Of a stretch of DNA of 47,440 bases, positions 1,462 through 40,856 are shown piece by piece. The stretch is from Paracoccaceae bacterium. Its GTDB lineage: Bacteria; Pseudomonadota; Alphaproteobacteria; Rhodobacterales; Rhodobacteraceae. The stretch lies in assembly GCA_024226455.1 (NCBI GenBank), contig JAAELR010000442.1, forward strand, positions 1-47,440, written 5' to 3'. The notes below the pieces were generated by a model. The model searched no databases. It was not told where the DNA came from and worked only from the letters and a program-made list of their open reading frames with translations. The position numbers were made by a program, and so were the translations under genes. Positions within the stretch are counted from its first letter, which is position 1. Every line of letters starts with the position of its first letter.

Positions 1462-2318
1462 CTAGACCGGCTTTTTTCCAGCGAGCGGTAGCGTTCCTGG
1501 TGCTCCCGCGTCGATGCCAGCCGCAATAGGGCCAGATGGCCGCCCGATTGTGCATCCAGATCGGCCATGGCGGCGTATGTCGCGGCAGCGCTCGGCCAGG
1601 CGAGCGCTGCCGCGATGCGATTTGAGCACGAAACTGGCGGCGTCGCGCACGAAATAGTGGTTGATCTGTACCAAGCCGCGCAGGCCCGGATCGCGGGCGC
1701 GGAACCGTTTCAGGTCGAAGGTGCCCAGCGGCAGGTTTGAGCCGTTGCAGGTGCGGATCTGCTCTTCGGGCAGGTGTGGTCTTGGCGGGCGGTGGATGCT
1801 GCGGCGATCGAAGAGCGAGGGCCGGAACACGGTCTTGTATGGGGTCAGCCGTTCAATTATGCGCTCGCCGCACTCGGCCATGGTGAAACGGGCCGTTACC
1901 GTTTCGTCGGTAAACTCAGTCAGGACGCTATTGTCAAAGCGGCGCCAGTTCAGCAGCACCCGGTTGGTTTCGGGCAGCGCCGCGAAAAGATCGACGAGCC
2001 GGCCCCGGTACAACGAGCCGGCCCAGGCCCGGGTGGATCTGCAGGAACTCATCAAGATCAAGCGCCAGCGCGAAATCGGACTTCTGGTATTCGGGCTGGC
2101 GGGCGGCGCATTTATTGGCCTGGATCTGGTGTCGCACGGTTATGGCGGTAGCGCACGGCGTCGACCTCATCGAGGATCTGTAGGGTCTCTTGCGTCAGAT
2201 CGTCGGAATCGTTCTGGAATATGAGGATGTTATCGAATCCGATCCCGCAGTGGAGTGCGACCCACTCCAATAGGTGCGGGGCTTCGTTTTTGGAAGTTGC
2301 AACGAGTATCTAGGTCAT
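1462..2318 (-). pseudogene. Decayed GT2-like glycosyltransferase
   Basis: Pieces of the glycosyltransferase family found intact four times downstream can be read here in three frames of the minus strand. From an ATG at 2318 the second codon is followed by a TAG stop, then the frame gives an ILVATSKNEAPHLLEW block and NDSDDLTQETLQIL. A second frame (about 2130-2040) carries SDFALALDLDEFLQIH, equivalent to the catalytic DVDEF region. A third frame (about 2061-1570) carries NWRRFDNS, IHRP and LVQINHYFVRDAASFVLK. A possible fourth shift lies near 1570. One early stop plus at least two frameshifts make a functional product unlikely. It runs divergently from the giant glycosyltransferase gene. Confidence 0.8.
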
Positions 2319-2537
2319 GCCCGCCGGTGCTTTTGCTCCTTTATTTCACGATTCCGCGGCAGCTGGCGGAGGTAAATAGGGGTTTTCGAAAAAGTTGCCT
2401 TGTTTTTTTTGTGTTTGTGGGCGAAGATTCCCCAAAAAACAACGGGCAGCTTCACCAATTCGTGCGAACCTGACCCGACAAAAAGAGCGGTCAGGGCTGT
2501 CGAAAGAACAGCCAAGCAGGAATGAGAGAGTAGTTAC
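2319..2537. promoter_or_regulatory. AT-rich intergenic region upstream of the giant GT gene
   Basis: This stretch is markedly richer in A/T than its surroundings and contains an eight-T run near 2404-2411 and A-runs near 2430-2440. It separates the decayed glycosyltransferase from the 1742-residue gene and is the only plausible promoter region for the latter. No convincing -35/-10 pair was found. The ribosome-binding sequence before 2538 is a weak GAGAGAG about ten bases upstream. Confidence 0.4.
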
Positions 2538-5300
2538 ATGCAGCTCCCCATCGTCGCGTCGCTGTGGATCGGCGGTCCGCTGAGCTACTTAGAGCAGCTT
2601 TGCCTGAAGTCCTTTCTCGACCACGGGCACAGGGTGGTTCTCTATGCCTATGAAGAGGTGCCCAATGCGCCCGCGGGGGTCGAGTTTTTTGATGCGCGGC
2701 GGATATATCCCCTCGACACGATCCTGCGGCATAGCGATACCGGCTCTCCGGCGGTGCACTCCTATGCGTTCCGCTACCGGCTTTTGGAAGTGCAGAACGT
2801 TGTCTGGATCGACCTAGACATGCTGTGCCTGCGTCCCTGGGAGACTACCGATCAGTGGTTCTTTGGTTGGCAGGTAGAGGGGCGCCGGATGGGCGGCGCG
2901 GCGCTGAGGCTGCCGCGGTTTTCCAAGGCGCTGGTCAAGCTGAACCGGTTCTGCGGCAATGACTTTCCCGTTGCTCCCTGGCTGGACGAGGATCAGACGC
3001 ACCAGGTGCATGTGACCGAACGGGGGCTTGACCTCTGGGGTGGCGCGGCACTTGGGCATTTCCTGGGGGAAACCGGCGAGATATCGGCGGTGCGACCGCA
3101 GACGGAGTTCTATGGTGTGAGTTTCAAGAACCGGCGCGAACTGGTGCAGCCGGGGCAAATGGTCGAGGAACGGCTGGGAAGCGACGCGCTTGGCCTGCAT
3201 CTGTGGAGCCGTCGGCTGATCCGCTGGATCGATGGAACGCTGGATGGCCAGGCCCCGGCCGACAGCTATCTGGGGCGGGCACTGGCCCGGCACGACATCG
3301 ACCAGAGTGCGGCGCCGCTGCGTTTCGTGCCGCCGGGCATGGTGGCCCCGAAGACGGACGCGCCAAAGACCGTGCCACCGCGGGGCGCGCAGGAACGCCC
3401 GGCGTCGGCGGTCGCTGGTCGGATGGAACGGCGCCCGATCGACCCGGGCTTGCCGACGGTGGCGACACTGTGGATCGGCAAGCTGAGCTTTCTCGAACAA
3501 TTGTGTCTCAGCTCGTTCCGCGACTATGGCCATCGCACCGTTCTGTACAGTTACGGCCCGGTCGAGGGTGTGCCTGATGGGATCGAGCTGCGTGATGCCA
3601 ACACGGTGTTCCCGAACCAGGATTTCATCCGGCACAAGCGCACCGGGTCGCCCGCGATCCATGCCGACGCGTTCCGCTACCGGATGCTGCAGACCGAGGA
3701 TGTGATCTGGGCCGATGCGGACATGCTGTGCCTGCGCCCCTGGGATTTCGGCGGCAAGCGTGTGTTTGGCTGGGAGATTCAGGACGAGCAGACCTGCAAC
3801 GCGGTGCTGGGGCTGCCGAAGGGGTCGCAGACGCTCAAAAAGCTCAACGCGTTCTGCAAGGATGAATACCCCATCCCGCCCTGGGCCGAACCGAAGGAAA
3901 AAGACCGGCTGGAGGCTGCGAAAGCCGCCGGCAATCCGGTGCATGTGTCAGAGCTGAAATGGGGCGTCTGGGGACCGGCGGCGCTGACCTATTTCCTGCG
4001 CGAAACTGGCGAGATCTCCCATGCGCAGGTCGAACAGGCCTTCTTCCCCATTCCGTACGGGTCGCGGCGCGAGTTACTGAAGCCCGGCGACATGATCGAT
4101 AGGCGCCTGACCAACAAGGCCTACGGTGTGCATCTTTGGAACCGCCGGCTGCGGCGCAAGATACTGGCCGATGACGGGGGTGTGGTGGATCCCGCCAGCT
4201 TTGTCGGGCGGGCGCTGATCCGGCACGGGATCGATCCGGACAAGGCGCCGATCCCGGACGACCTGAAGGCGCATCAGCAGGCGTTGAAGGCAAAGGAGCA
4301 GGCCGGGCAGGCCGCGGCGGAAACCGCCCTGCCAAGCCGAGAGATCTCGCGTCAGGAGATCCGCAAGGCGATGCGCGCCATGCCAGTCGATAGCGCCGAA
4401 ACGATGGCGCGCCGACCGATCGACCCGACGCTGCCGACGGTGGCCGCTCTCTGGATCGGCGGCACGCTGAGCTTTCTCGAGCAAGTCTGCCTGCTGTCGT
4501 TCCGCGATTTCGGCCACCGAACGGTGCTGTACACCTACAAGGGTGTCGACTGCGTGCCCGACGGCATCGAAGTGCGCGACGCAAATGAGGTCTTTGCGCA
4601 GGAGAACTATGTCAAGCACAAGAACTCCGGCTCTCCGGCGCTGCATTCGGACGTGTTCCGCTACTGGATGCTGAAGGAGGAAGACGTCGTCTGGATCGAC
4701 GCGGATGTGTTGTGCATGAAGCCATGGCGGTTCGAGACGCCGTTCGTCTATGGCTGGGAAAAGCCGCCGCGGCTGATCTGCGGCGCCGTGCTGGGCCTGC
4801 CGAAGGACAGCAAGACGCTGCACGCGCTGCTGGAGTTCTGCAAGGACGAATACCCGATCCCGCCCTGGGCCGGAGACGAGGAAAAGGTGCGCCTGCAAGA
4901 GGCGCATGGCCGGGGCGAGCCGGTGCATGTGACAGAGTTGAAATGGGGCGTCTGGGGGCCCTCGGCGCTGACCTATTTCCTCAAAGAGACCGGCGAGGTC
5001 GAGCATACGCTGAAGCGCGAGGCGTTCTATCCGGTCTCGTTCAAGGACCGCCGTGACCTGTTGGAGCCGAATTTCGACCTGAGAGACCGGGTCGGGCGCG
5101 GCTGTTTCGGGGTGCATCTGTGGAACCGCCGCATCCGGCGCCGCATCGTCACGGACGAGGCCGGCCTGCCACATCCCGAGAGCCTGCTGGGCAAGGCGCT
5201 GCTGCGCCACCGGGTCGATCCGCGCCTGTCGCTGATCCCCGACACGCCACCGCCGGGCTTTCCCAAGCGCGAAGAGGTGCTGGCCAAGATGCCCGCCGCC
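2538..5300 (+). repeat. Three tandem ~290-codon coding repeats inside the giant GT gene
   Basis: Unit 1 spans about 2538-3400, unit 2 about 3430-4310 and unit 3 about 4405-5300. Units 2 and 3 share a lead-in coding for R-R-P-I-D-P-x-L-P-T-V-A and long matching blocks such as FCKDEYPIPPWA and LKWGVWGP-ALTYFL. Unit 1 matches the same landmarks less closely and lacks the FCKDEYP block in that exact form. A fourth, free-standing unit forms the N-terminus of the gene at 10838-12376. Confidence 0.85.
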
Positions 5301-7766
5301 GATGTGACCGCTGAAAGGGCGGAGTATGACCGCCGGTCGGAGATATACGATGCGATCGGCGACAAGACCAACGCCGCGGTAGCAGGGGCCGTTGAGCAGC
5401 CGGTTTGGCCGGGCGAGGACGACACACAGAAACCGCAGAAAGACGCCACGAAAATCCAACTTGCAGCGCAGCCGGTGCCCGGGGCCGATGCCAACGCTGC
5501 GCCCGACATGGATGCCGAAGGGTTGCAGGAAACGCCCGAGGGGTCGAACAACCCCAATGTCACCATCACCCCGCCCGCCGCGTTGCTGGATCTGCCGGTG
5601 ATGCCGCTGCAGCAATCGCCGGAATATCAGCAGGCGATAGACAATCTCGAAGGCCGAACCGGCGGTATCACGGGTTATCTGAAAGACCCCGAAACGCCTA
5701 TCGACAATGACAAAATCCTGATCGTCACCTCGATGAAGAACGAGGCACCGTTCATCCTGGAGTGGATTGCTTATCACAAGTCGATAGGGATCGATCATTT
5801 CCTCGTCTACACCAACGACTGCACCGACAACACCAACGAGATCCTCGACCGGTTGGGCGATCTGGGTTATGTCACCCGGGTGGTGAACCCTTGGGACAAG
5901 GCCAGCGGCAAGAAGCCCCAGCATGTGGCGTTGAAGGATACGCAGAACCAGCCTGCCTACAAGGCGGCCGACTGGGTGTTGACCATCGACGTGGACGAGT
6001 TTGTCAACATCCACGTGGGCGACGGCACATTCAGTGATCTGTTCCGTGCCAGCAACTATCCCAACGTCGTTTCTTTCACCTGGAAGTTTTTTGGAAACAA
6101 GGACATCCACGCCTATTTGGATCGCCCGATCACCGAGCAATTCGTTAATTGCGCGCCAGAGTTCATCCCCAAGCCAAGGCTGGGCTGGGGTTTCAAGTCG
6201 ATGTTCCACAAGAGCTCTCCGTACACACGGATCGGCGTGCACCGCCCGCTTGGGATCGACGATGACGACGCCGACCAGGTGCGCTGGGTCAACGGCTCTG
6301 GCCGGGCGATGCCGGACATGTTGCTGACCAACAATGGCTGGCGTTCGACCAAGCGGTCGCTGGGCTACCGGCTGGCGACGCTGAACCACTATATTCTGCG
6401 CTCTGCCGAAAGCTTTCTGGTCAAGCGGGAACGCGGGCGGATCAACCATACCGAGCATGATCAGGGCATCGATTACTGGACGCGGCGCAATTATGCGACC
6501 GAGACCGACACCCGCATCCATGCGCGGTTGCCGAGGATGCAGGCCGTGCTGGACGAATTGAAGGCCGACGCCGATCTGGCGCGGATGCACGATCAGGCGG
6601 TGGACTGGCACAAAACCCGGATCCGGGGCTTGCTGGACAACCCCGACTACAAGCAATTGTTCGACGAACTGACCCGGCCCGACCGCGCCGACGCGCTGGA
6701 ACTGGCCAAGGCAGCCGAGGCCGAGGCGCAGCAAGAGGAGCGGGAGGCGCAAGAGGCGATGTTGCACCGCGAGGACAAGCCAGCAGTGTCGCTGACCGCC
6801 GTCGCACCGCTGCAAAGCCTGCACATGGTCTCGCCGCCGGCATCCGCGGCTTCGGGCCCGTTGCACGAACGGTTCAACGACGCCCGGCAACTCGCACAGC
6901 GCTCCAAGGGCTTTTTGTGGGAGGGCCCGACCAACGCATTGATGTTCACCCCGCGCTCGCGCCGGCTGGTAGTGGCCTTCGACAACATCTCGATCGCGCG
7001 CGCCGAGGGCCAGCGCTGGCCCTGGGGCTTCAGGGTGCTGGGGCAGGAAATGGATTGTTCGGTTCTGGGCGTGATGTGCACCGAACGCAACTGGTACCGC
7101 GAGGAATTCGTGCATGACGGGTTCGAAGCGTTGCGCGACCAGGGTTTTTTCGAGCAGTTCGACGAGGTTCTGTTCTACGGCACCTCGATGGGCGGGTTCG
7201 GCGCGTTGGTCTATTCGCAATGCGCGCCCGGCAGCCACGTTCTGGCCATCGCGCCGCAGTCGACGCTGGATCGCCGAAAACTGCCGGAAGAGGACCGCTG
7301 GGGTTGGACCCGCAAGCTTGACTGGTCGGGACGGTTTGCCGATGCGGCCGGCGCGGTGGACAAGGCGGGCGAGATCATCATCGTCGCTGACCCCTATTTT
7401 AAACCCGATTTCGACCAGGTCGACCGGATCCGGGGCGAAAACGTCACCTGGCTGCACACGCCATTCATGGGCCACCAACTGCCCAACGCCTTCCTTGTGA
7501 TGAACATCCTCAAGGACATGCTCTATGCCGCCGCGGGTGGAACGCTGACGCCGAAGCTCTTCTACAAGCTCTTCCGCGCCCGTAACGACCTGCCGCGTTA
7601 TCAGCACGACCTGCTGATGGAGGCGGAAAAACGCGGCAAGATCCGCAGCGCGATCCAGATCTGTGAATACACGCTGAGGAAACGCAAGGCCCATAACATC
7701 AAGAAAACGATGGACAGGCTGAAGACCGAACTGGCGAAAATGCAACGGCACGAGGCGGCGGAGTAG
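2538..7766 (+). CDS. 1742-residue multi-module glycosyltransferase with C-terminal hydrolase-like domain
   Basis: Five modules are visible. Residues 1-~285, ~303-~590 and ~630-~920 are three tandem copies of a DXD sugar-transferase-like domain. Each opens with a 'LWIG..LSFLEQ.CL.SF.D.GH' block and carries an acidic motif (D92-L-D94, D393-A-D395, D721-A-D723) followed by a conserved 'LC.(R/K)PW'. Copies two and three are closest; the first has drifted. A low-complexity linker (~925-1055) leads to a GT2-like module at ~1058-1340 with MKNEAPFILEW, NDCTDN and D1151-V-D1153-E-F. A charged, Ala/Glu-rich stretch (~1365-1400) then joins an alpha/beta-hydrolase-like domain with G-T-S1550-M-G-G and a later 'GHQLP' histidine. 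No signal peptide or membrane segment is seen, so the site is probably cytoplasmic. The gene ends 5 bp before the next glycosyltransferase. Involvement in surface glycan assembly is inferred; donor and acceptor are unknown. Confidence 0.85.
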   Translation: MQLPIVASLWIGGPLSYLEQLCLKSFLDHGHRVVLYAYEEVPNAPAGVEFFDARRIYPLDTILRHSDTGSPAVHSYAFRYRLLEVQNVVWIDLDMLCLRPWETTDQWFFGWQVEGRRMGGAALRLPRFSKALVKLNRFCGNDFPVAPWLDEDQTHQVHVTERGLDLWGGAALGHFLGETGEISAVRPQTEFYGVSFKNRRELVQPGQMVEERLGSDALGLHLWSRRLIRWIDGTLDGQAPADSYLGRALARHDIDQSAAPLRFVPPGMVAPKTDAPKTVPPRGAQERPASAVAGRMERRPIDPGLPTVATLWIGKLSFLEQLCLSSFRDYGHRTVLYSYGPVEGVPDGIELRDANTVFPNQDFIRHKRTGSPAIHADAFRYRMLQTEDVIWADADMLCLRPWDFGGKRVFGWEIQDEQTCNAVLGLPKGSQTLKKLNAFCKDEYPIPPWAEPKEKDRLEAAKAAGNPVHVSELKWGVWGPAALTYFLRETGEISHAQVEQAFFPIPYGSRRELLKPGDMIDRRLTNKAYGVHLWNRRLRRKILADDGGVVDPASFVGRALIRHGIDPDKAPIPDDLKAHQQALKAKEQAGQAAAETALPSREISRQEIRKAMRAMPVDSAETMARRPIDPTLPTVAALWIGGTLSFLEQVCLLSFRDFGHRTVLYTYKGVDCVPDGIEVRDANEVFAQENYVKHKNSGSPALHSDVFRYWMLKEEDVVWIDADVLCMKPWRFETPFVYGWEKPPRLICGAVLGLPKDSKTLHALLEFCKDEYPIPPWAGDEEKVRLQEAHGRGEPVHVTELKWGVWGPSALTYFLKETGEVEHTLKREAFYPVSFKDRRDLLEPNFDLRDRVGRGCFGVHLWNRRIRRRIVTDEAGLPHPESLLGKALLRHRVDPRLSLIPDTPPPGFPKREEVLAKMPAADVTAERAEYDRRSEIYDAIGDKTNAAVAGAVEQPVWPGEDDTQKPQKDATKIQLAAQPVPGADANAAPDMDAEGLQETPEGSNNPNVTITPPAALLDLPVMPLQQSPEYQQAIDNLEGRTGGITGYLKDPETPIDNDKILIVTSMKNEAPFILEWIAYHKSIGIDHFLVYTNDCTDNTNEILDRLGDLGYVTRVVNPWDKASGKKPQHVALKDTQNQPAYKAADWVLTIDVDEFVNIHVGDGTFSDLFRASNYPNVVSFTWKFFGNKDIHAYLDRPITEQFVNCAPEFIPKPRLGWGFKSMFHKSSPYTRIGVHRPLGIDDDDADQVRWVNGSGRAMPDMLLTNNGWRSTKRSLGYRLATLNHYILRSAESFLVKRERGRINHTEHDQGIDYWTRRNYATETDTRIHARLPRMQAVLDELKADADLARMHDQAVDWHKTRIRGLLDNPDYKQLFDELTRPDRADALELAKAAEAEAQQEEREAQEAMLHREDKPAVSLTAVAPLQSLHMVSPPASAASGPLHERFNDARQLAQRSKGFLWEGPTNALMFTPRSRRLVVAFDNISIARAEGQRWPWGFRVLGQEMDCSVLGVMCTERNWYREEFVHDGFEALRDQGFFEQFDEVLFYGTSMGGFGALVYSQCAPGSHVLAIAPQSTLDRRKLPEEDRWGWTRKLDWSGRFADAAGAVDKAGEIIIVADPYFKPDFDQVDRIRGENVTWLHTPFMGHQLPNAFLVMNILKDMLYAAAGGTLTPKLFYKLFRARNDLPRYQHDLLMEAEKRGKIRSAIQICEYTLRKRKAHNIKKTMDRLKTELAKMQRHEAAE

Positions 7767-7771
7767 GGGCA

Positions 7772-8887
7772 ATGACGGAAAAACGGCTGATCGTAACCTG
7801 CATGAAGAACGAGGCGCCCTACATCCTGGAATGGGTCGCCTATCACCGCGCCATCGGGTTCACTGACTTTTTGGTCTTCACCAACGATTGCGACGACGGC
7901 ACGGTCGAGGTGCTGGACACGCTGCAGAAACACGGGGTTCTTACCCGGCGCGACAATCCGTATCTGGAGATGTCCGGAGATCATAATCCGCAGAAAGGTG
8001 CCTTGCGCTTTGCCGAGGATCTGGACCAGGTGCAGCAGGCCGACTGGGTGATGGTGACCGATGTCGACGAGTTCGTGAACATCCATGTGGGCGACGGCAC
8101 GCTGGACGCTTTGTTTGGCGCGGTGGGCGAGGTCGATGTGGTTTCTATGCAGTGGCGGTTATTTGGCAATGCAGATGTGGATGGCTTCAGGGACAGTTTC
8201 GTTACCGAGCAATTCAGCATGTGTGCGCCCGAGTTCTGCCCCAACCCGATCCAGGCCTGGGCGGTGAAGTCGCTGTTTTCCATGCAAGGAGGCCACAAGG
8301 TGGGCAAATTCACCCGACTCGGCGTGCACCGCCCGGCGAACCCGGGCGAGGATGCCGGTGACATCACCTGGGTCGATGGCTGCGGACGTCCGGTGCTGGA
8401 CAAGTTCATCGACAGCGGTTGGCGATTCGGCACCCATTCGGCGGGTTACGGGCTGGTGACCCTGAACCACTATGCCTGCCGCTCTGCCGAAAGCTTTGCG
8501 GTCAAGCGCGACCGGGGCCGGGTCAACCATGTCGACCGCGAACAGGGACTGGCCTATTGGCTGCGGATGAATTTCAACATGGAGCGTGATGACAGCATCC
8601 GCCGGATGATCCCGGCTGCACGGGTGGAATACGACCGGCTGCTGGGCCTGCGCGGCATGAAGACCCGGCAGACCGAGGCCCTGCGCGCCCATCGCGGCAA
8701 GATCCGCGACCTGCTGGCGCGTCCGGACATGCAAGCATTTCATGCAGAGATCACCTCACCCCGGATGCGGCTGATGTCGCGGCATCTCAATCTGCTGAAC
8801 CGGGAGATCATGACCGAGGGTCCGGCGTTGATTCCCGACAGGATCCTTGACCGGATCGCGCAAATACCCGACTTGCTGGCGGGGTAG
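7772..8887 (+). CDS. GT2-like family glycosyltransferase, single module
   Basis: This 371-residue protein is one free-standing copy of the GT2-like module found inside the giant neighbour. Landmarks in order are CMKNEAPYILEWVAYH near residue 10, NDCDDGT near 40, D-V-DEFVNIHVGDG near 95-105, WRLFGN, EQF-CAPEF, GVHRP, and LVTLNHYACRSAESFAVKRDRGR. The DVD motif is the expected metal/nucleotide-sugar site of GT-A folds. The start at 7772 follows the upstream stop by five bases and has GGGGC just before it, so the two genes are likely co-transcribed. The sugar specificity cannot be told from the sequence. A C-terminal helical tail of about 90 residues matches the tail region of the fused copy. Confidence 0.85.
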   Translation: MTEKRLIVTCMKNEAPYILEWVAYHRAIGFTDFLVFTNDCDDGTVEVLDTLQKHGVLTRRDNPYLEMSGDHNPQKGALRFAEDLDQVQQADWVMVTDVDEFVNIHVGDGTLDALFGAVGEVDVVSMQWRLFGNADVDGFRDSFVTEQFSMCAPEFCPNPIQAWAVKSLFSMQGGHKVGKFTRLGVHRPANPGEDAGDITWVDGCGRPVLDKFIDSGWRFGTHSAGYGLVTLNHYACRSAESFAVKRDRGRVNHVDREQGLAYWLRMNFNMERDDSIRRMIPAARVEYDRLLGLRGMKTRQTEALRAHRGKIRDLLARPDMQAFHAEITSPRMRLMSRHLNLLNREIMTEGPALIPDRILDRIAQIPDLLAG

Positions 8888-8891
8888 GGCG

Positions 8892-9836
8892 ATGGTCGAC
8901 GAGGTCTGGCTGCATATCGGCGCGCCGAAAACCGGCACGTCCAACCTGCAAAAACGCTTTGCCGCCGACCGCAAGGTGCTGGCGGAGCAGGGGCTGGCCT
9001 ATCTGACGCCGCCGGGCAAGAACTGTTGCAACGACTTGGCGTTTGCGGTGAAACGCAACCGCTCTGATTTGCGCGACATGGCCGGGGCGCTGAACCGCGA
9101 GATCGAGATCCGGCCCGAGCCACGCGCGGTGATCTCCAGCGAAATGCTCTATGGCGTGCCGCCCGACATTCTGTTGAACCTGATGCCGGCGCTGGCCGCG
9201 CGGCCGTTGAATGTACTGGCCTACCTGCGACGCCAGGACCGGTTCATCGAGGCCATGTTCCTGCAGAAATCGAAAAATGGGCGATTCTTCGGCTCGATTG
9301 CCAGCTACATCAAGCGGTTTCAGGGCAGTGGATCGGACTTTCAGGCCATGCTGGCGCCTTGGGAACAGGCCGGTGGCGACGTCACACTGGTGCCACGGGT
9401 GCTGGAACCTGGGCAGCTGACCGGCGGCGATGTGGTAAGCGACGCCTTTTCGTTGATCGGATTGCCAGCGCCGCAGGTGGATGGAGAGGCACGGGTAAAC
9501 GTGTCACCGGGGCTGCACCGGGTGCAGATCTTGCAGGTGGCCGCGCGGCTTGGCGTGGTTAACCCGCGCCGCCTACAGAGGGAACTGTCGGCGAAGTACC
9601 CGCAAAAACCGGCAGAGCGCGCGCCGATCCTCAGCCAGGCCGAGCGGCGCGAATTCGTGGCGCGCTACGCGGCGGGAAACGAGGCGTTGCGGGCGCGCTA
9701 CTTTCCGCATGCCGACACGCTTTTCGACATGTCAGGCCTGGAGGGTGAAACGCCGCCCCAGGGCATCGCGCCCTTCACGGACGCGCAGTTGATGGAAGTG
9801 CAGCGCCTGATGGAGGTGATCGAGGAACTTCGCTGA
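8892..9836 (+). CDS. Sulfotransferase-like protein
   Basis: This 314-residue protein begins with VDEVWLHIGAPKTGTSNLQK, the classical 5'-phosphosulfate-binding loop of PAPS-dependent sulfotransferases: strand, then P-K-T-G-T-S. The lysine of the loop is present. A second landmark, 'LAYLRRQDRFIEAMFLQ', fits the 3'-phosphate-binding Arg/Ser segment (R-x-Q-D in this bacterial group). It follows the GT2 gene by 4 bp and is probably in the same transcript. The start at 8892 was chosen because upstream in-frame codons overlap the previous gene and precede the loop with unrelated sequence. Transfer of sulfate to a glycan made by the adjacent transferases is an inference from context. Confidence 0.8.
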   Translation: MVDEVWLHIGAPKTGTSNLQKRFAADRKVLAEQGLAYLTPPGKNCCNDLAFAVKRNRSDLRDMAGALNREIEIRPEPRAVISSEMLYGVPPDILLNLMPALAARPLNVLAYLRRQDRFIEAMFLQKSKNGRFFGSIASYIKRFQGSGSDFQAMLAPWEQAGGDVTLVPRVLEPGQLTGGDVVSDAFSLIGLPAPQVDGEARVNVSPGLHRVQILQVAARLGVVNPRRLQRELSAKYPQKPAERAPILSQAERREFVARYAAGNEALRARYFPHADTLFDMSGLEGETPPQGIAPFTDAQLMEVQRLMEVIEELR

Positions 9837-9839: not shown

Positions 9840-10814
9840 TCAGGACTTTTCTGGCGTCTCGGGTTCGGCCAGCCAGTCCGGCAGGGCGCCCTTTTTCGCC
9901 AACACGGTCGTTGCCGCATTGAGGTTCCTTCGAAAAACAGGACCGTTCTGGCGGCTCCTGAGCACGTAGTCGCAAAGCAGCGCCACGCGCAGTGGATTGC
10001 CGCGGCGTCCGGTCGCCTGCAACAGTGACCGAAGGTACGGCCCATGTGTGCGGCGCTTGCGCAGCAGGTCAAAGAAGACGTGCGCGCTGAGGTGGTCCAC
10101 GCTGGCCAATTCGATGACCTGGTGCAGCAGGTCCATCTCACGCAAACCCCGCTCGACCGCTCCGCCGAAATGGCGGCAGGCCAGCCGCGTCACGTTGGGG
10201 CCGCGAAACAGGCTGGCATGGATGTGATCCAGCGGCTGATACGGGTCGAAGAGGACAAATGCCTCGCCGGCACCCTCTAGCATGTCGGGGGCATAGCCAT
10301 AGCGGTCGTCGAAGGAGAATCGCCGGGCCGCAGGAAAGCGGTGATCCCACCCTGCCCGGCTGGTGTCCAGCGTCGCCTGCGGCGAGATTGCCACAACCGT
10401 CGCGCCCGGCGCGGCGACCGAAAAGGCACAGGCAGAATAGGCGCCGGTGCCGGCGCCATAGAACAGAACCTGTTCGAAATCCTCAAAGAACATATCATCG
10501 ACCAGCCGGTCCATGAATTCATAGACGCACGGATTGCGAAACCAAGTTTCCTTGCGCGCAGTCATCTGCAGAAGCGAGCAGTTCTTGTCCTCGACGAAAT
10601 CCAGCCCCAAGGGCATGCCATCGGGTGAGGCGGCGATTGTGTGCCCGGCCAGTTCGAATGTTACCAGCAGCTTGGGGCCGCGTGCGATGAACGTGGCGAT
10701 GTGGTTTGCGTCTAGTTCGGTCTGGAACCCGCCTTCGCCCAGGTCGTCGCCTAGTGCCGCCAGCATCTCGCCCGGCGTTGCTACCTTGTCCAGTTTCGCC
10801 ACTTTCTTGACCAT
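9840..10814 (-). CDS. Alpha/beta-hydrolase-like protein without the nucleophile serine
   Basis: This 324-residue protein is homologous along its middle and C-terminus to the last domain of the 1742-residue protein. Shared blocks include F-x-x-VLFYG, ATVVAISPQATLD, a (L/D)FDPYxP segment and a C-terminal helical region ending with LCDYVLRSR versus ICEYTLRKR. At the nucleophile elbow the giant protein has G-T-S-M-G-G, whereas this one has G-A-G-T-G-A, so the serine is a glycine. It may bind a ligand without hydrolysis or act as a structural partner. Its stop lies 3 bp from the convergent sulfotransferase stop. The ATG at 10814 has an AAAGGG upstream, and the gene lies 23 bp downstream of the GT-methyltransferase gene on the same strand. 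Reported annotations of relatives as PAPS reductase are not supported by any motif I see. Confidence 0.75.
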   Translation of the reverse strand: MVKKVAKLDKVATPGEMLAALGDDLGEGGFQTELDANHIATFIARGPKLLVTFELAGHTIAASPDGMPLGLDFVEDKNCSLLQMTARKETWFRNPCVYEFMDRLVDDMFFEDFEQVLFYGAGTGAYSACAFSVAAPGATVVAISPQATLDTSRAGWDHRFPAARRFSFDDRYGYAPDMLEGAGEAFVLFDPYQPLDHIHASLFRGPNVTRLACRHFGGAVERGLREMDLLHQVIELASVDHLSAHVFFDLLRKRRTHGPYLRSLLQATGRRGNPLRVALLCDYVLRSRQNGPVFRRNLNAATTVLAKKGALPDWLAEPETPEKS

Positions 10815-10837: not shown

Positions 10838-12376
10838 TCAGCGCTTGTGAAGCACGAGTATCTGATCGCGCCGTTTCTTCTGGAAGTTCGCCTGAAAGAT
10901 GAAGCAACCAGAAATGTCGGCTCGTACGTTGTTCAATTCCGCCTTTGCCCCCTCGTCGGGAAGGTCGAAGACACCGGTCTCCAGATAGCCGTGGAAAATC
11001 GCCGATGTTTTGACCGAACCTTGTTTTTCCAGCGACGCGGGCTGGGTGCGCAGATCCTCGACGATATAGAGCCCCCCCGAGGCGAGGCGCGGGAAGATAG
11101 CGCGCAGGGCGTTCTGCTGGTGGTGGCTGACATGGGTGGCGTCGTCGATCACGATATCGGGATTCTTGTCCAGCGCAGCGGCGATCTCATCGGGGTTTTC
11201 CAAGGTGACTTGTTGGTATTTCACACGTTTGTCGCGAACGGGCAGGGGCGCGGGGGCGGGGCGGTCCAACGCGGTGATTTCAGCCTTTGGAAAGTACTCC
11301 AGCCACATCTGCAGCGTCTGTTTCGCCAGATCGGTCCAATTCTCTGGCGCGTCCACGGCCGCGCCGCCGTCGAGGCCGATCAGCGCGATCTTCAGCTTGC
11401 GCTGGCGCAGCGGCAGGAAAAGCATCTGGTAGAGTTCGGTGAACCGGTGCCGGCTTGAGCCTCGGTCAGAGCCGCGCGCGTCTGCCAGATCGGTGAGGTT
11501 CACAAGGCCGCGGCCCCGCCTTTGTTCGGGCGTCAGCGCCACCGGTTTCGGTGACGGTTTGGGCAGCGGCGCGTCCGAAGGCACGACGCTGTGTTTGCGC
11601 AACAATCGCCCGATCAGCGAGTCCGGATGCGGCTCGCCGTCCCCCTGCGCGATGCGCGCGCGCATCCGGCGCCCGTAGAAATGGATCGACAGGGTTTCCG
11701 GCGTGATGAAGCGCTCTGCATTGGCGCCGGGGCGCACCATCGACCCGCGCTCTTTGAATCCGATGGGATAGAGCGCCGCGCGTGGCAGTGCGTGGCGGAT
11801 CTCTCCGGTCTTGTGCAGGAAATGGGTCAGGGCCCTAGGCCCCCAGGCACCCCATTGCTGGTCTCCGACGCCGATCGGATTACCGCTGTCTCTTGCGGCG
11901 CGCAACTGGTCCTGTTCGGCGGTGGGCAGCCATTCGGGGATGGCGAACTCGTCGGCGGTGAAGGCGATCAGTTCGCGCAGAGTTTCGCTATCGCGGGGCA
12001 GGCCAAGTACGCCATTATTGACGTGATGGGGGGATTCCCACCCGTGGAAATGGCCGTTCGCGGTTTTGAAGGGGCGCACGCAATAGGCATCGGTGTCTGC
12101 CCAGATCATATGGTCGTGCTGCGCCAGCAAGTGATAGCGGAACCTGTCTGCCTGCGGCGCCGGGCTGCCGGTGCGGCTGTGCCGGATAAATCCGTCGGTC
12201 GGCAGCACTCTGTTTGCATCGGCTATCTCGACCCCGTCGGGCACATGCTTGACTGGGCCATAGGTATAAAGCTTGACGTGATGGCCTGCGTCGAGAAAGG
12301 AGATGAGACAAAGCTGTTCGAGGAAACTCAAAGTCCCGCCGATCCAGAGCGCACCGATCTGATAGTCTTGTGGCAT
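10838..12376 (-). CDS. DXD glycosyltransferase fused to a class I SAM methyltransferase-like domain
   Basis: The 512-residue product has two halves. Residues ~5-290 are a fourth copy of the DXD sugar-transferase unit: IGALWIGGTLSFLEQLCL, GSPAPQADRFRYHLL, and WADTDAYCVRPF, where the acidic motif is D-T-D. Residues ~315-512 resemble the macrocin-type/CmcI-like O-methyltransferase fold. The key landmarks are LQMWLEYFPKAEITALD, then IVIDDATHVSHHQQNAL (metal-binding D-D...H) and GGLYIVED. The glycine-rich SAM loop (IALIGLDGGAAVD) is atypical. A bifunctional enzyme that adds and then methylates a sugar would fit, but this is inferred. The gene is divergent from the next GT2 gene across about 100 bp and probably co-transcribed with the hydrolase-like gene downstream. 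Confidence 0.8.
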   Translation of the reverse strand: MPQDYQIGALWIGGTLSFLEQLCLISFLDAGHHVKLYTYGPVKHVPDGVEIADANRVLPTDGFIRHSRTGSPAPQADRFRYHLLAQHDHMIWADTDAYCVRPFKTANGHFHGWESPHHVNNGVLGLPRDSETLRELIAFTADEFAIPEWLPTAEQDQLRAARDSGNPIGVGDQQWGAWGPRALTHFLHKTGEIRHALPRAALYPIGFKERGSMVRPGANAERFITPETLSIHFYGRRMRARIAQGDGEPHPDSLIGRLLRKHSVVPSDAPLPKPSPKPVALTPEQRRGRGLVNLTDLADARGSDRGSSRHRFTELYQMLFLPLRQRKLKIALIGLDGGAAVDAPENWTDLAKQTLQMWLEYFPKAEITALDRPAPAPLPVRDKRVKYQQVTLENPDEIAAALDKNPDIVIDDATHVSHHQQNALRAIFPRLASGGLYIVEDLRTQPASLEKQGSVKTSAIFHGYLETGVFDLPDEGAKAELNNVRADISGCFIFQANFQKKRRDQILVLHKR

Positions 12377-12477: not shown

Positions 12478-13530
12478 ATGGCTTCCGCGTCGGTGGCGTG
12501 GGTGAGGGTTCTGCTGGTCTCTGCGCTGCGCGACGAGGCGCTGCATCTGGCCGAGTGGGTGGCCCACCACCGAGCTGCAGGGGTTACGGACTTTCTTTTG
12601 TTCTCCAACGATTGCAGCGACGGCACCGACGCAATGCTGAAGGCCCTGGCGCCGATGGGCGTGGTGCATCTGCGCAACCTGCCACCACAGGGCAAATCGC
12701 TGCAGTGGAACGCGCTGAGAGAGGCCTGGCACCATCCGTTGCGCAAGTCCGCCGACTGGGTGCTTTGCATCGACAGCGACGAGTTCGTCAATCTGCGCGC
12801 GCCGCTCGGCTCGCTGGCCGATCTGGTCGCGGCTTGCGGCGATGCGGACGCGATAGCGCTGCCCTGGCGGCTTTTTGGTCATGCCGGGCAGGCCCGGCAG
12901 AGCACCCAACTGACGACAGAGGTCTTTACCCGCGCCGCGCCAGCGGGCTGCGACTATCCGGTGGGCGGGCGGCAGTTCAAGACCCTGTTTCGCGCTCACG
13001 GGCCGTTCCGTCAGATCGGTGTGCATCGGCCGAAGCTGAAGAAGGATGCGCAGGCGGTCTGGACCGACGGCTCTGGTGCGCGGATGCCGGTGGGATTTGC
13101 CCAGGCGGAACAACGGATCAACCTATACGGCTTGGCAGAGGCCAGCGCTTTGGTGCAGCTCAACCACTATTCGGTGCGCTCTGCCGAAAGCTTCATGCTG
13201 AAGCGCGCCCGCGGGCTGCCGAACCGACGCTCCAAGGAGATTGGGCTGACCTATTGGGTCGAGCGGAATTTCAACACAGTGGAAGACACCAGCATAGCGC
13301 GCATGTTGCCTGATACCAGGATACTCCTGGACCAGATCATGGCGCTGCCGGGTATGGCCGGGCTGCAGAACGAAGCGGGTGTGCACCACCGTACACAGTT
13401 TGCGGAATTGATGCGGCAGACCGACGAGATCAAGCTCTACGGGCGTCTATTGCTGATGGCCACGGCGACGCCGCTGGCGCCTGATACCGTTGCCGGGCTG
13501 GTGCGCCTATATCAGGTCAGCCATGGTTGA
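12478..13530 (+). CDS. GT2-like family glycosyltransferase
   Basis: This 350-residue protein is a divergent copy of the GT2-like module. It carries LVSALRDEALHLAEWVAHH, NDCSDGTDAML, C-I-DSDEFVNLRAPLG (a DSD rather than the DVD of its relatives), LPWRLFGH, GVHRPKLK, and LVQLNHYSVRSAESFMLKRARG. The ATG at 12478 is the first in frame and is preceded by GGGGTGA at short spacing. An internal GTG nearer the first conserved strand (around 12496) is an alternative start. Its last codons overlap the start of the next gene by 8 bp, so translation is probably coupled. Confidence 0.8.
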   Translation: MASASVAWVRVLLVSALRDEALHLAEWVAHHRAAGVTDFLLFSNDCSDGTDAMLKALAPMGVVHLRNLPPQGKSLQWNALREAWHHPLRKSADWVLCIDSDEFVNLRAPLGSLADLVAACGDADAIALPWRLFGHAGQARQSTQLTTEVFTRAAPAGCDYPVGGRQFKTLFRAHGPFRQIGVHRPKLKKDAQAVWTDGSGARMPVGFAQAEQRINLYGLAEASALVQLNHYSVRSAESFMLKRARGLPNRRSKEIGLTYWVERNFNTVEDTSIARMLPDTRILLDQIMALPGMAGLQNEAGVHHRTQFAELMRQTDEIKLYGRLLLMATATPLAPDTVAGLVRLYQVSHG

Positions 13531-15790
13531 CCGGGCGGTGTTTCACAGGCGAGAACTGCGGGCGGTCAAGGTGGCTGGCCTGCTTGTGCTCGACACCCTG
13601 CGCTGGCCGACACCTTTTGGCAGCGCGTTGCGGCTCTATCTGGGCCGCGGTGGCGACCCGGGGTTGCTGGTGCAGCCCAAGGGTGAGGCGGTCACGCTGG
13701 ACGAGCCGGAGATGGTTAGTGGCAACGTCATCGTTACCGGCACCGCGCCCGAGGGTGATGAGGCGTTGACGCTGAAGCTGGCCGCCGGCGGGTTCAGCCT
13801 GCCGGTTTCGGTGCCCGATCCGGGGCTGTTCGACGATCTGAACGTTTTCGTGGCGCAGCGGCATCGCGAGACCGCCGATCAGGTGGCCGGCTGGCTGGGC
13901 TATCATGTGGCACATCATGGGCTGGAGGCTTTGCTGCTGTTCGATCGGGCGCCGCCGGGGCAGGGACGCGAGCAGTTCGCGCAGGCGCTTCAGGCGGCGA
14001 TTGCCGGGATGGAGGGGCTGAAACGCGCGGTTCTGGTCACCGCGCCGCTGCCGCTCGGCTGCGCCGACATGCCCGCGCTGGGCGACCCGGCCATGGCGCC
14101 ACGCGCCAAGGACCGCACCTTTGCCGCTGATCCCTGGCGCGCCGCGCTGAACCAGCCCGTGCTCTATGATATCCTGAAATGGCGCTTTCTCAGCCGGGCA
14201 GGGGCGGTGATTGCGCTCGATCCCTGCGATATCCTGCGTCTGCCCGTTGATGGCATCGGTGTTTTCGAGGCCTGCCGCCAGTCGCATACCGGTGTAATGT
14301 GGGTTGTGGGAGAACTGATCTATCCCTGGCGCGTCCGCAAGGGGCAGGTGCCGCTGCTGGCAGACCATATCTGCCGCGCCCACCCCGCCGCCGATGCACC
14401 GCGGAGCTGGGCCGTGGCCCCAAGGCGGTTGGCGGCGAGGGCGGTCTGGCTGCCGCAGGAAGTTACCGGGACGCAGGTGGTGGCCGAACAAGTGGTTGAG
14501 TATGACCGTGCGCAGTCGGTGCTTTTTGCCGAGGCCGAGGTGGCGGCGCTGGTCAACAAGGACCTGCTTGAGCGGGACGAGGCGCTGCTCGAGCGCGCTC
14601 GCGACGCCCTTGGCCACCGCCCGGTGCTGCCGCCAGAGCGCAAGGCAGCACTCGTTCCGGCCAACTTCGCGCCGCTGTCGGATCGAGTTGTGATCGTCAC
14701 CTGCATGAAAAACGAGGGGCCGTTCATTCTGGAATGGCTGGCCTGGCACCGGATGACCGGGGTCGATGATTTCCTGATTTACACCAACGATTGCGATGAC
14801 GGCACCGACCGGCTGCTCGACCTGCTACAGGACCGCGGCCTGGTGCAGCGCCGCGACAACCCTTTTCGCGACACCAGCGGCAGGCCGCAGCAATCGGCGC
14901 TGAAGGCGGCCCAATTGGAACCGGTGCTTGAACAGGCCGGCTGGATCGTCGCGATGGATGTGGATGAGTTCATCAACGTCCATACCGGCGGCGGGCGGCT
15001 GCCGGATCTCTTTGCGGCCATGGGTGAGGCCAACATGATCTCGATGACATGGCGTCTGTTCGGCAATTCCGACATCGAGGTTTTCGAGGACCGCCCGGTC
15101 ACCGAGCAATTCACCCGTTGCGCACCGCATCTGATCCGCCGGCCGCATCAGGCCTGGGGTCTCAAAACGCTGTTCCGCAATCTTGGCTACTGGGACAGCC
15201 TGGGTGTGCACCGTCCGCGCGGGCCCAGGGGAGACGGTATCAAATGGGTCAACGGTTCGGGCCAACCGATGCCGGAACGCATGCTGCGCACCGGCTGGCG
15301 CAGCGCGATGGACAGCTACGGCTACGACCTGGTGACCCTGAACCACTACTCGGTGCGCAGCGTGGAAAGCTTTCTGGTCAAACGCGACCGGGGTCGGGTC
15401 AACCACTTGGCCCGCGATCAGGGCGAGGCGTACTGGTTTCGGATGAACAACAACGACGAGCAGGATCTCTCGATCCAACGCCATTCTGCGGCATTGGAGG
15501 CAGAGATCGCGGCGCTGAAATCCGACCCCGACATCGCGGCGCTGCATGAAATCACGGTGGCCGCGCACCAGGCGAAGATTGCCGCGCTTTTGCACGATCC
15601 GAGCTTTTCGGCACTTCATGCGCGACTTTGCAGCGACCGATTGCGCCGGCTTTCCCGGCTGCACCGGCATTTCGGGATGAATGTCTTTCTGCGCGGCCCC
15701 GGTGTGGTGCCCGAACGGGTATTCGAGCCCGACCTGCCGGCGAATTTCTTTTTCAACACCGCTCGACCCAAGGGAAAGGCGGCAGAATAG
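13523..15790 (+). CDS. Two-domain GT2-like glycosyltransferase
   Basis: The 755-residue product has a complete GT2-like module in its second half (~391-700). It has CMKNEGPFILEWLAWH, YTNDCDDGTDRLL, A-M-DVDEFINVHTGGGRL, WRLFGNSDIEVFEDRPVTEQF, GVHRPRG, and LNHYSVRSVESFLVKRDRGR. The first half (~1-385) has its own fold with landmarks LNVFVAQRHRETADQVAGWLGYH, FDRAPPGQ, IALDPCDIL, IYPWRVRKG and LADHICRAH. This resembles a highly diverged GT-A domain in which an acidic pair remains in a D-P-C-D context. The start at 13523 overlaps the previous gene by eight bases; an earlier in-frame ATG at 13490 would lengthen the overlap and lacks support. Specificity is unknown. Confidence 0.8.
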   Translation: MVDRAVFHRRELRAVKVAGLLVLDTLRWPTPFGSALRLYLGRGGDPGLLVQPKGEAVTLDEPEMVSGNVIVTGTAPEGDEALTLKLAAGGFSLPVSVPDPGLFDDLNVFVAQRHRETADQVAGWLGYHVAHHGLEALLLFDRAPPGQGREQFAQALQAAIAGMEGLKRAVLVTAPLPLGCADMPALGDPAMAPRAKDRTFAADPWRAALNQPVLYDILKWRFLSRAGAVIALDPCDILRLPVDGIGVFEACRQSHTGVMWVVGELIYPWRVRKGQVPLLADHICRAHPAADAPRSWAVAPRRLAARAVWLPQEVTGTQVVAEQVVEYDRAQSVLFAEAEVAALVNKDLLERDEALLERARDALGHRPVLPPERKAALVPANFAPLSDRVVIVTCMKNEGPFILEWLAWHRMTGVDDFLIYTNDCDDGTDRLLDLLQDRGLVQRRDNPFRDTSGRPQQSALKAAQLEPVLEQAGWIVAMDVDEFINVHTGGGRLPDLFAAMGEANMISMTWRLFGNSDIEVFEDRPVTEQFTRCAPHLIRRPHQAWGLKTLFRNLGYWDSLGVHRPRGPRGDGIKWVNGSGQPMPERMLRTGWRSAMDSYGYDLVTLNHYSVRSVESFLVKRDRGRVNHLARDQGEAYWFRMNNNDEQDLSIQRHSAALEAEIAALKSDPDIAALHEITVAAHQAKIAALLHDPSFSALHARLCSDRLRRLSRLHRHFGMNVFLRGPGVVPERVFEPDLPANFFFNTARPKGKAAE

Positions 15791-15905: not shown

Positions 15906-16802
15906 ATGAAATTCGGCAGTCCCGCAATCACTTTCGTCTATCATCTCGGCGCGCATTGCACCGACGAGAACACGCTGATCCGTTCGCTGATGAAGAATGG
16001 CAACGATCTGAACAAAAACAAGATCATCGTGCCCCGGCCGCGTCGTTATCGCAGACTGCTTGGGGACGTCATGAACAAGTACCGCGGCGACCCGATGCCC
16101 GAGGACGAACAGAAGAGACTGTTCGAGATGATCCTGATGGGCTACCCGGCCGAGCGGGTGATCGTCGGCGATGAAAACTATCTGTGCTGGCCGCAGAAGA
16201 TCTTCGATGCCGGCCAGTTCTACAGCACGGTCCCGTTCCGCAGCACCTGGGTGCGGTATCTGTTTCCGGAAAACCCTTGCGAGTTTTTTCTCGCCATCCG
16301 CAACCCGGCGACGTTCGTGCCTGCGGTCTTCGCGGCCAGCAAGGCAGATGACTTCGAAAGTTTCATGTCCGGGGCCGACCCGCTCCAGCTGCGCTGGGCC
16401 CGGGTGATCCAGGATCTGCAAGACAACAATCCCGGCTGCGCGATTACCGTCTGGTGCAACGAGGATACGCCTCTGGTCTGGCCGACCATCCTGCGTGAGC
16501 TTTCGGATGCCGATGATGACCTGCCTCTGGACGGCGAGCTTGACGTGCTTCGCGGGATCATGACCGAGGACGGGTTCGAGCGGATGCAAACCTATCTGGC
16601 GACACATGCCCCGCCCAGCGAGATCCAGCGCCGCCGGGTGTTCGCCGCGTTCCTGGACAAGTTCGCCATTGAGGAGGCGCTGGAAGAGGATATCGATCTA
16701 CCGGGGTGGACCCCGGAACTGGTCGACCGGATCACCGCGAACTACGAAGACGACGTCTATCAGATAGAGCGAATGTCAGGGGTGAACTTCATCGCCACCT
16801 GA
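15906..16802 (+). CDS. Sulfotransferase-related protein with altered PAPS loop
   Basis: This 298-residue protein opens with AITFVYHLGAHCTDENTLIR, which aligns in position and shape with the H-(I/L)-G-A-x-K-T-x-T loop of the sulfotransferase at 8892. The critical lysine is a cysteine and the following residues are T-D-E. Later segments (YLFPENPCEFFLAIRNPATFVPAVF) match the 3'-phosphate-binding region with R-N-P. The C-terminal part is acidic and mostly helical. Loss of the loop lysine suggests it does not use PAPS in the usual way. It sits 115 bp after the two-domain glycosyltransferase on the same strand and closes the glycan island. There is no strong ribosome site before the ATG. Confidence 0.65.
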   Translation: MKFGSPAITFVYHLGAHCTDENTLIRSLMKNGNDLNKNKIIVPRPRRYRRLLGDVMNKYRGDPMPEDEQKRLFEMILMGYPAERVIVGDENYLCWPQKIFDAGQFYSTVPFRSTWVRYLFPENPCEFFLAIRNPATFVPAVFAASKADDFESFMSGADPLQLRWARVIQDLQDNNPGCAITVWCNEDTPLVWPTILRELSDADDDLPLDGELDVLRGIMTEDGFERMQTYLATHAPPSEIQRRRVFAAFLDKFAIEEALEEDIDLPGWTPELVDRITANYEDDVYQIERMSGVNFIAT

Positions 16803-27249: not shown

Positions 27250-27253
27250 CGGT

Positions 27254-27287
27254 GCGCTCATCGGGCCCTCGCGGGCCCTCCTCGCTG
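27254..27287. repeat. 34-bp dispersed intergenic repeat, copy 2
   Basis: This is the reverse complement of 21841-21874 with one mismatch (GCGAGGGCCC where the other copy has GCAAGGGCCC). It lies in the 90-bp convergent gap between mnmH and selD. Immediately after it, GCGATGAGCGTTGGG occurs twice within about 40 bp (27296-27338), adding a short direct repeat. Confidence 0.7.
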
Positions 27288-27338
27288 GGCGGCGAGCGAT
27301 GAGCGTTGGGGCGGAGCCCCGCGCGATGAGCGTTGGGT

Positions 27339-34392: not shown

Positions 34393-34396
34393 GAAC

Positions 34397-37949: not shown

Positions 37950-37973
37950 GCCCCCCTTTCCGGCGGACCGAGC

Positions 37974-38315: not shown

Positions 38316-38369
38316 ATCCCAAGTCTCCGTATGCCCGTTATTTGAACTGTGCCGCGCTGTGGACAGCCA

Positions 38370-38756: not shown

Positions 38757-38830
38757 CGGCAACCCAGTTGACGCGGGGATTGTATAATACATAATCTGAA
38801 TGTGTGAATTGATCAAGGAAAAGCCCGCCG
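38757..38830. promoter_or_regulatory. soxS-soxV divergent promoter and probable SoxR operator
   Basis: For soxV, TTGACG (38774-38779) is spaced 16 bp from CATAAT. On the other strand TTGATC is spaced about 17 bp from TATGTA-type sequence, so the two promoters overlap. An imperfect dyad, GATTGTATAATACATAATC, covers the shared A/T-rich core. A bound repressor would block both directions. A plausible AAGGAAAAG ribosome site precedes soxV. Confidence 0.6.
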
Positions 38831-39562: not shown

Positions 39563-39582
39563 CGGATTTTGGAGGATCTGAC

Positions 39583-40810: not shown

Positions 40811-40856
40811 CTCGGGATCCGAGGGACGAATTCTCTAAACCAAGGAGACGAAGAAT

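What the first reader, a model, noticed from the sequence alone, without database searches (positions are those of the whole stretch)
2538..7766. A single 1742-residue protein holding three DXD glycosyltransferase modules, one GT2-like module and a hydrolase-like module
All four transferase modules keep an acidic D-x-D pair (D92/D94, D393/D395, D721/D723, D1151/D1153), and the final domain keeps a G-x-S-x-G-type elbow at S1550. Three same-type transferases in series on one chain, with no membrane segment, suggest successive additions to one acceptor, much like an assembly line. I do not know of a characterised protein with this module order; that is a memory-based statement.
Basis: partly seen in the sequence, partly recalled or inferred. 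Interest (0 to 1): 0.75.

Follow-up and report, generated by a model that had tools for sequence, protein, structure and literature searches.

The report
Giant enzyme with stacked sugar transferases
A marine bacterium carries one very long protein that strings together several sugar-adding enzymes and a probable sugar-decorating enzyme; related bacteria have the same protein with one, two or three copies of the first unit, and in the three-copy form the first copy seems to have lost a key residue.

Summary
The ORF is real: 1,742 codons, with the named motifs at the named residues. It holds three GT32-like modules (M1-M3), one GT92-like module (better than 'GT2-like') and an alpha/beta-hydrolase-fold module with a candidate S1550-D1618-H1646 triad. 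It is not an assembly artefact. Other relatives have one or two GT32 modules. This is therefore the long form of a family with a variable number of modules.

The assembly-line reading is only partly supported. M2 and M3 are 82-83% identical between the two three-module proteins. M1 is 56-57% identical, and in both it has Tyr where the other 61 of 63 modules have Asp, although D-x-D is kept. M1 is probably altered or non-catalytic, yet still under purifying selection.

The last module most resembles glycan O-acetyltransferases (Asp2/Gap2, CsaC), tied with esterases. All 22 copies fused to a GT32 keep Ser and His; 41 of 86 copies lost both, none of them fused. Donors, acceptor and activities are untested.

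The parts
2538..7766 (+). Gene for the 1,742-residue modular protein (GT32-GT32-GT32-GT92-hydrolase)
   Evidence: Open frame and translation; architecture; same architecture in G395
2538..3338 (+). M1, GT32-like module, D-x-D at residues 92/94; Tyr76 where the other 61 of 63 modules have Asp; fast-evolving
   Evidence: Own HMM; residue counts; dN/dS about 0.20 against 0.075-0.090 for M2, M3, GT92 and the first part of the hydrolase
3447..4280 (+). M2, GT32-like module, D-x-D at 393/395
   Evidence: Own HMM; PF04572 best stretch lies here; 82% identical to G395 M2
4428..5261 (+). M3, GT32-like module, D-x-D at 721/723, of a separate clade from M1 and M2
   Evidence: Own HMM; tree; GT-A fold of the model, YeGT Z 13.7, glycogenin Z 12.4
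5688..6701 (+). GT92-like module (PF13704/PF01697), D-x-D at 1151/1153
   Evidence: Pfam; GalS1 Z 16.9, rmsd 3.2, 227 aligned
6825..7742 (+). Alpha/beta-hydrolase-fold module with candidate S1550-D1618-H1646 triad; probable glycan O-acyltransferase or esterase
   Evidence: Model pLDDT 75.1; Gap2 Z 13.2, CsaC Z 12.8, esterases tied; triad positions
7772..8887 (+). Free-standing GT92-like transferase, first neighbour downstream (gap of 5 bases)
   Evidence: PF13704 9.2e-22
8847..9836 (+). Protein of unknown family with an N-terminal P-loop-like G-x-P-K-x-G-T-S; sulfotransferase-like by recall only
   Evidence: No Pfam hit, no useful PDB hit; motif seen in three genomes
9840..10814 (-). Free-standing paralogue of the hydrolase module without the Ser and the His: predicted pseudoenzyme
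   Evidence: Alignments; also without Ser and His in L012, L013, L043, L105, L123 and L159, L160
10838..12376 (-). GT32-like module with a C-terminal half that weakly resembles a methyltransferase
   Evidence: Own HMMs; PF13578 E 0.0071, below cut-off
12478..13530 (+). Free-standing GT92-like transferase
   Evidence: PF13704 2.1e-18
13490..15790 (+). N-terminal domain of unknown family plus GT92-like module; predicted start may be too far upstream
   Evidence: PF13704 1.5e-18; N-terminal part without a significant Pfam hit
15906..16802 (+). Conserved protein of unknown family at the end of the island
   Evidence: No Pfam hit; orthologues in L012, L043, L105, L123, L159, L160

Best explanation
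It is a cytoplasmic, multi-catalytic glycan-building enzyme of a Rhodobacteraceae glycosylation island. Two active GT32-like modules (M2, M3) and one GT92-like module each add a sugar from a nucleotide-sugar donor to one growing oligosaccharide, and the C-terminal alpha/beta-hydrolase-fold module puts an acyl (probably acetyl) group on one of those sugars through a Ser-His-Asp relay, as Asp2/Gap2 and CsaC do. M1 no longer works as an ordinary transferase and serves in acceptor binding, docking or positioning. The array grew and shrank during evolution, so related bacteria make chains with one, two or three GT32 modules. Shown by computation: module identity, the folds of M3, the GT92 module and the hydrolase, conserved residues, varying module number, retention of the chain in a second genome, faster change of M1. 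Inferred: every catalytic step, the acyl group, a single shared acceptor, the role of M1, cytoplasmic location.
For: Open frame and motifs. Pfam for GT92 and GT32-like parts. GT-A fold of M3 (YeGT Z 13.7, glycogenin Z 12.4) and of the GT92 module (GalS1 Z 16.9). Hydrolase module: best solved matches Gap2 (6oyc_B, Z 13.2, rmsd 3.7, 199 aligned) and meningococcal capsule O-acetyltransferase (6yuo_A, Z 12.8, rmsd 4.5, 191 aligned). Same 32-32-32-GT92-H order in G395 at about 70% identity. One or two GT32 modules in the corresponding genes of L012, L013, L043, L044, L045, L159, L160, L161. M2 and M3 orthologous by position between the two three-module proteins at 82-83%, dN/dS 0.075 and 0.087. M1: Asp to Tyr in both three-module proteins, D in the other 61 of 63 modules; dN/dS about 0.20, still well under 1. 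Ser and His kept in 22 of 22 hydrolase modules fused to a GT32, lost in 41 of 86 copies, none fused (GT32 match only partial in two of the 22, L121 and L122).
Against: No activity is known for any member. Gap2 and CsaC are tied within 1 Z with plain esterases, and the solved-structure sequence search gave nothing useful for the hydrolase. D-x-D, the Arg of the Asp-motif and most near-invariant residues are kept in M1, so it might still work with a changed donor. dS is near saturation (1.3-2.0), so the dN/dS values are rough. The candidate acid D1618 is kept also in copies without Ser and His, so it may be structural. Linkers are modelled at low confidence (pTM 0.42, model residues 320-435 under pLDDT 50), so cooperation of the modules is not shown. 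No exporter or polymerase was found among the 10 other window ORFs scanned, so the acceptor is unknown.
Confidence: 0.45

Rival explanations
1. True assembly line: all three GT32 modules and the GT92 module are active and add four sugars in order to one acceptor, so that module number sets oligosaccharide length.
For: D-x-D kept in 63 of 63 GT32 modules, M1 included; module number varies 1-3 in corresponding genes; the WbdA precedent, two or three modules, one for each linkage type (PMC11231755, passages seen); M1 still under purifying selection, dN/dS about 0.20.
Against: M1 has lost the Asp kept in the other 61 modules and a near-invariant Trp, and changes faster than M2 and M3.
Confidence: 0.2
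2. The last module is a deacylase or esterase that trims an acyl group from the glycan or an intermediate, instead of adding one.
For: Many plain esterases lie within 1 Z of the acetyltransferases; by Foldseek E-value the esterases FphH and Est30 rank first, CsaC 13th.
Against: The highest VIA-align rows include the two glycan O-acetyltransferases; the module is fused to sugar-building modules.
Confidence: 0.25
3. Beads on a string: the modules act independently on different acceptors and are fused only for co-expression and stoichiometry.
For: Long low-confidence linkers; the same modules occur free-standing or in other fusions (32-H, 32-92-92, 32-M, 92-H) in relatives.
Against: The order 32(n)-92-H is kept in the corresponding genes of several genera, which is not needed for mere co-expression.
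Confidence: 0.25
4. A secreted or injected glycosyltransferase that acts on host proteins of an animal host.
For: The GT32 profile weakly matches the GT domain of SetA (E 9.4e-5) and the M3 model matches host-modifying GT domains among many others; one named relative was found in a sponge (PMC4559732, whole text).
Against: The gene lies in an island of further sugar-transferase genes; GT32-like modules occur in 172 of 394 family genomes, whose lifestyles are not given; glycogenin-type and blood-group transferases match about as well. No secretion-signal search beyond hydrophobicity was run.
Confidence: 0.04

Closest known systems
WbdA-type multi-module mannosyltransferase polymerases (K. pneumoniae O3/O5 = E. 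coli O9/O8)
   Same: Two or three related GT modules in one chain, one for each linkage type (PMC11231755, passages).
   Different: WbdA modules are GDP-mannose GT4 enzymes of GT-B fold (family and fold recalled); here GT-A modules with D-x-D, a different GT92-like module and a hydrolase-fold module, and no ABC exporter among the window ORFs scanned.
WbbB / WbbM multi-domain O-antigen polymerases of Klebsiella
   Same: Several GT modules in one chain; WbbM appears among the M3 fold matches (6u4b, Z 11.8).
   Different: Other module families and order; no hydrolase-fold module in those chains (recalled); linked to ABC-transporter export (PMC11231755, passages).
Asp2/Gap2 of the accessory Sec glycoprotein systems
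   Same: Alpha/beta-hydrolase fold and a Ser-Asp-His triad; top fold match of the last module (Z 13.2). Asp2 acetylates GlcNAc on GspB (PMC5578698, passages).
   Different: Asp2/Gap2 is a separate export partner in Gram-positive bacteria; here the module sits on the transferase chain; no useful PDB sequence match.
CsaC, capsule O-acetyltransferase of meningococcal serogroup A
   Same: Alpha/beta-hydrolase-fold carbohydrate O-acetyltransferase (Z 12.8).
   Different: Stand-alone enzyme (recalled); 9% identity in the structural alignment.
GT92 family (plant GalS1) / PF13704
   Same: Same fold, D-x-D, Pfam scores above cut-off.
   Different: GalS1 is a membrane-bound plant galactan synthase (recalled); here a module inside a fusion without membrane segment.

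Membership tests
GT32-like / GT-A transferase (modules M1-M3) | D-x-D in the right place | tested here: met
   63 of 63 aligned modules, including M1-M3
GT32-like / GT-A transferase (modules M1-M3) | GT-A fold | tested here: met
   M3 model: YeGT Z 13.7, glycogenin Z 12.4. M1 and M2 not modelled; they are 44-57% identical to M3
GT32-like / GT-A transferase (modules M1-M3) | Pfam cut-off for PF04572 or PF04488 | tested here: inconclusive
   PF04572 passes on the whole chain (35.6 against 22.3); PF04488 22.5 against 23; no single module passes, and M1 matches neither family
GT32-like / GT-A transferase, module M1 | Asp of the (A/S)-D-x-F-R-Y motif before D-x-D | tested here: not met
   Tyr in M1 of window and G395; Asp in the other 61 of 63 modules
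GT92 / PF13704 (fourth GT module) | Pfam cut-off, D-x-D and GT-A fold | tested here: met
   PF13704 79.7 bits (cut-off 27.5), PF01697 56.7 (cut-off 23); D1151/D1153; GalS1 Z 16.9
Alpha/beta-hydrolase fold | Fold, nucleophile elbow, Ser-His-acid | tested here: met
   distances between triad atoms could not be measured
Glycan O-acetyltransferase (Asp2/CsaC kind) | Acetyl transfer to a glycan | not testable with these tools
   Needs enzymology
Glycan O-acetyltransferase (Asp2/CsaC kind) | Closer to these than to esterases | tested here: inconclusive
   Z 13.2 and 12.8 against 12.9 and 12.8 for the nearest esterases; Foldseek E-value ranks esterases first
WbdA-type polymerase system | Several GT modules on one chain | tested here: met
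WbdA-type polymerase system | ABC exporter genes (wzm/wzt) beside the polymerase | tested here: inconclusive
   None among 10 other window ORFs scanned with Pfam; other window ORFs and the rest of the genome were not scanned

The most novel reading that the evidence does not exclude
A glycan-building protein whose number of GT32 modules is an evolvable dial (one, two or three in corresponding genes of close relatives), coupled on the same chain to a glycan O-acyltransferase, in which the third copy freed the first to become a non-catalytic acceptor-binding or length-setting module. Beside it stands a conserved catalytically dead copy of the acyltransferase.
Probability: 0.3. Interest if true: 0.62.

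Novelty: new variant of a known kind. Interest (0 to 1): 0.45.

Why it matters
Few multi-module bacterial glycosyltransferases are understood. Here relatives differ by one module at a time, which gives a natural series for asking how module number sets glycan structure. The fusion also ties a probable O-acylation step to sugar addition on one chain, and about half of the sampled hydrolase-fold copies in this bacterial family look catalytically dead, a ready test set for pseudoenzyme roles. If M1 is non-catalytic, it would show how a duplicated transferase turns into a helper domain. One relative lives in a sponge, so the glycan might matter in a symbiosis, but that is speculation.

Tried and rejected
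Assembly artefact: rejected, because G395 has the same three-module chain at about 70% identity with position-by-position orthology.

Recent tandem duplication: rejected; the modules are 44-57% identical and M3 sits in its own clade.

A rule 'active hydrolase only beside GT32': held in the first set (26 of 27 active copies fused or adjacent to a GT32, but 7 of 16 dead copies were also adjacent to one) and failed in 40 further loci, where 12 of 16 active copies were not near a GT32 by my 300-base criterion. Only the narrower statement is kept: copies fused to GT32 keep Ser and His.

Exporter or acceptor gene: not found in 10 further window ORFs nor by eye among the ORFs of 20 kb next to the island in two relatives (no database run on those). 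NCBIfam gave nothing for the seven island proteins. The PDB search with the neighbour at 8847-9836 gave only a chance hit. Papers: searches listed nothing on this protein or island (only part of each list is shown); subscription journals and preprints are not held.

Wider census: the 40 further hydrolase loci are high-scoring rows not fetched before, not a random draw. One search scored at most 6 candidates in each genome and printed only part of its matches, so 'tandem GT32 only in G000, G132, G214' holds for the printed rows. Tree one search used 39 of 63 modules: stand-alone and 32-H modules were left out, and two long or doubtful rows were dropped; one search used 56.

Full report
OBSERVATION. 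D-x-D triplets start at 14 places, so the motif alone is weak, but the modules are independently supported. Pfam gives PF13704 and PF01697 (GT92) at about 1067-1202 and PF04572 over the GT32-like part of the whole chain; PF04488 just misses its cut-off, and single GT32 modules miss theirs. The three GT32-like modules are 44-57% identical to each other and 41-48% to a free-standing GT32-like gene at 10838-12376.

STRUCTURE. A model of residues 620-1742 has confident M3 and GT92 parts, but disordered linkers and pTM 0.42, so the arrangement of modules is unknown. VIA-align places M3 with GT-A enzymes (YeGT Z 13.7, rmsd 3.2, 184 aligned; glycogenin Z 12.4) and the fourth module with the plant enzyme GalS1 (Z 16.9, rmsd 3.2, 227 aligned). 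A model of the last module alone (pLDDT 75.1, pTM 0.75) matches alpha/beta hydrolases. The highest Z are Gap2 of the Gap123 glycosylation-associated complex (13.2), a lipase (12.9), the meningococcal capsule O-acetyltransferase (12.8) and the esterase Est30 (12.8), all tied; Foldseek E-values favour esterases. M1 and M2 were not modelled separately.

RELATIVES. The genome-contig scan found two named relatives, 'Candidatus Rhodobacter lobularis' (L012) and MAG Rhodobacter MASabin.1 (L013); the first was described from the sponge Oscarella lobularis (PMC4559732, whole text read). Architectures: GT32-GT92-H in L012, L043, L044, L159, L160 and L161; GT32-GT32-GT92-H in L013 and L045; GT32-GT32-GT32-GT92-H in the window and in G395 (L105), a genome of the same genus as G327. 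In G395 the gene is split inside the hydrolase part by an insert that carries an ORF recurring elsewhere in the same genome; I take it to be a transposase from memory. Module number thus differs inside one genus (one in G327, three in G395). In the genus of G151, 4 of 5 genomes have a GT32-GT92-H chain and one (G779) has GT32-GT92 without the hydrolase in the same frame. Other fusions in the family include 32-92, 32-92-92, 32-H, 32-M and 92-H.

DISTRIBUTION. The GT32 profile matches 172 of 394 genomes of the family and 7 of 385 of a class-wide sample, of which 3 are of the same family and 4 outside it with weaker matches (E 6.8e-30 to 9.6e-4). The hydrolase profile matches 316 of 394. Among the printed rows, only G000, G132 and G214 have more than one GT32 match in one frame.

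M1 IS DIFFERENT. In the trees M2 and M3 of the window pair with M2 and M3 of G395 on short branches (82-83% identity), and M1 pairs with M1 on long ones (57%); M3 belongs to a clade with modules of G214, G211 and G779. Between window and G395, dN/dS is about 0.20 for M1 against 0.075, 0.087, 0.090 and 0.089 for M2, M3, the GT92 module and the first part of the hydrolase; dS is near saturation, so these are rough. M1 of both has Tyr in place of the Asp found in the other 61 of 63 modules, and Leu for a Trp found in 59 of 63; the Arg of the same motif and D-x-D are kept. From established knowledge of GT-A enzymes of related type, that Asp contacts the donor (recalled, not tested). M1 is therefore probably impaired or altered, but selection still maintains it.

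HYDROLASE COPIES. Over 86 modules, 43 keep Ser and His, 41 have lost both and 2 are mixed. All 22 copies fused to a GT32 keep both (in L121 and L122 the GT32 match is only partial); none of the 41 is fused. The window's own free-standing copy (9840-10814) lacks both. A stricter rule, that active copies always lie beside a GT32, failed in the second set.

CONTEXT. The gene heads an island of further transferases: GT92-like 7772-8887, a P-loop-like protein, the dead hydrolase copy, GT32 with a possible methyltransferase half, two more GT92-like genes and a conserved unknown. The order is largely shared by L012, L013 and L105. The same acyl-CoA dehydrogenase seems to lie beyond the island in window, L125 and L126 (by eye). 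No polysaccharide exporter appeared among 10 other window ORFs scanned.

KNOWN SYSTEMS. Bacterial polymerases with several GT modules on one chain are known: WbdA has two or three modules, one for each linkage type, and WbbB and WbbM have several (PMC11231755, passages). Asp2 O-acetylates GlcNAc on an SRR glycoprotein through a predicted Ser-Asp-His triad (PMC5578698, passages). The present chain works like the first in having several GT modules, and perhaps like the second in its last module, but it belongs to neither by the tests I could run. I rate it a new variant of a known kind.

VERDICT. The simple assembly line is weakened by M1; a modular acyl-glycan builder with an altered first module is the best-supported reading (0.45). 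Interest 0.45.

Noticed in passing
window 1465-2360 (-): Degraded GT92-like gene with stops and frame breaks just upstream; an unbroken homologue stands at the same place in L013 (3813-4775 -) and a GT92-like gene also lies there in L105 (18869-19891 +).
   Followed up: partly
window 9840-10814 (-) and 41 of 86 sampled hydrolase copies: Many free-standing hydrolase-fold copies in this bacterial family have replaced both catalytic Ser and His, often next to a GT92-like gene; a large family of predicted pseudoenzymes.
   Followed up: partly
L105 (G395) 4710-7483 and L126: The GT32-methyltransferase gene of the same island in G395 is also split, and the insert of the large gene recurs nearby: signs of insertion-element spread in this genome.
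   Followed up: no
L118 (G015) 6034-8568: Three separate GT32-like genes head to tail, a possible unfused counterpart of the array, though distant in the tree.
   Followed up: no
window 26200-29711: Rhodanese-domain gene next to a fusion of a pyridine nucleotide-disulphide oxidoreductase with an AIRS/SelD-like half; looks like a selenium module (Pfam, selenium role recalled).
   Followed up: no
window 31981-36817: Two adjacent long ORFs (803 and 806 residues) that look like tandem dimethylglycine or sarcosine dehydrogenase paralogues (family recalled).
   Followed up: no
window 36900-46600: Genes that look like a sulfur-oxidation (sox) cluster with a sulphur-transport protein (Sulf_transp, the rest recalled from the ORF translations).
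   Followed up: no
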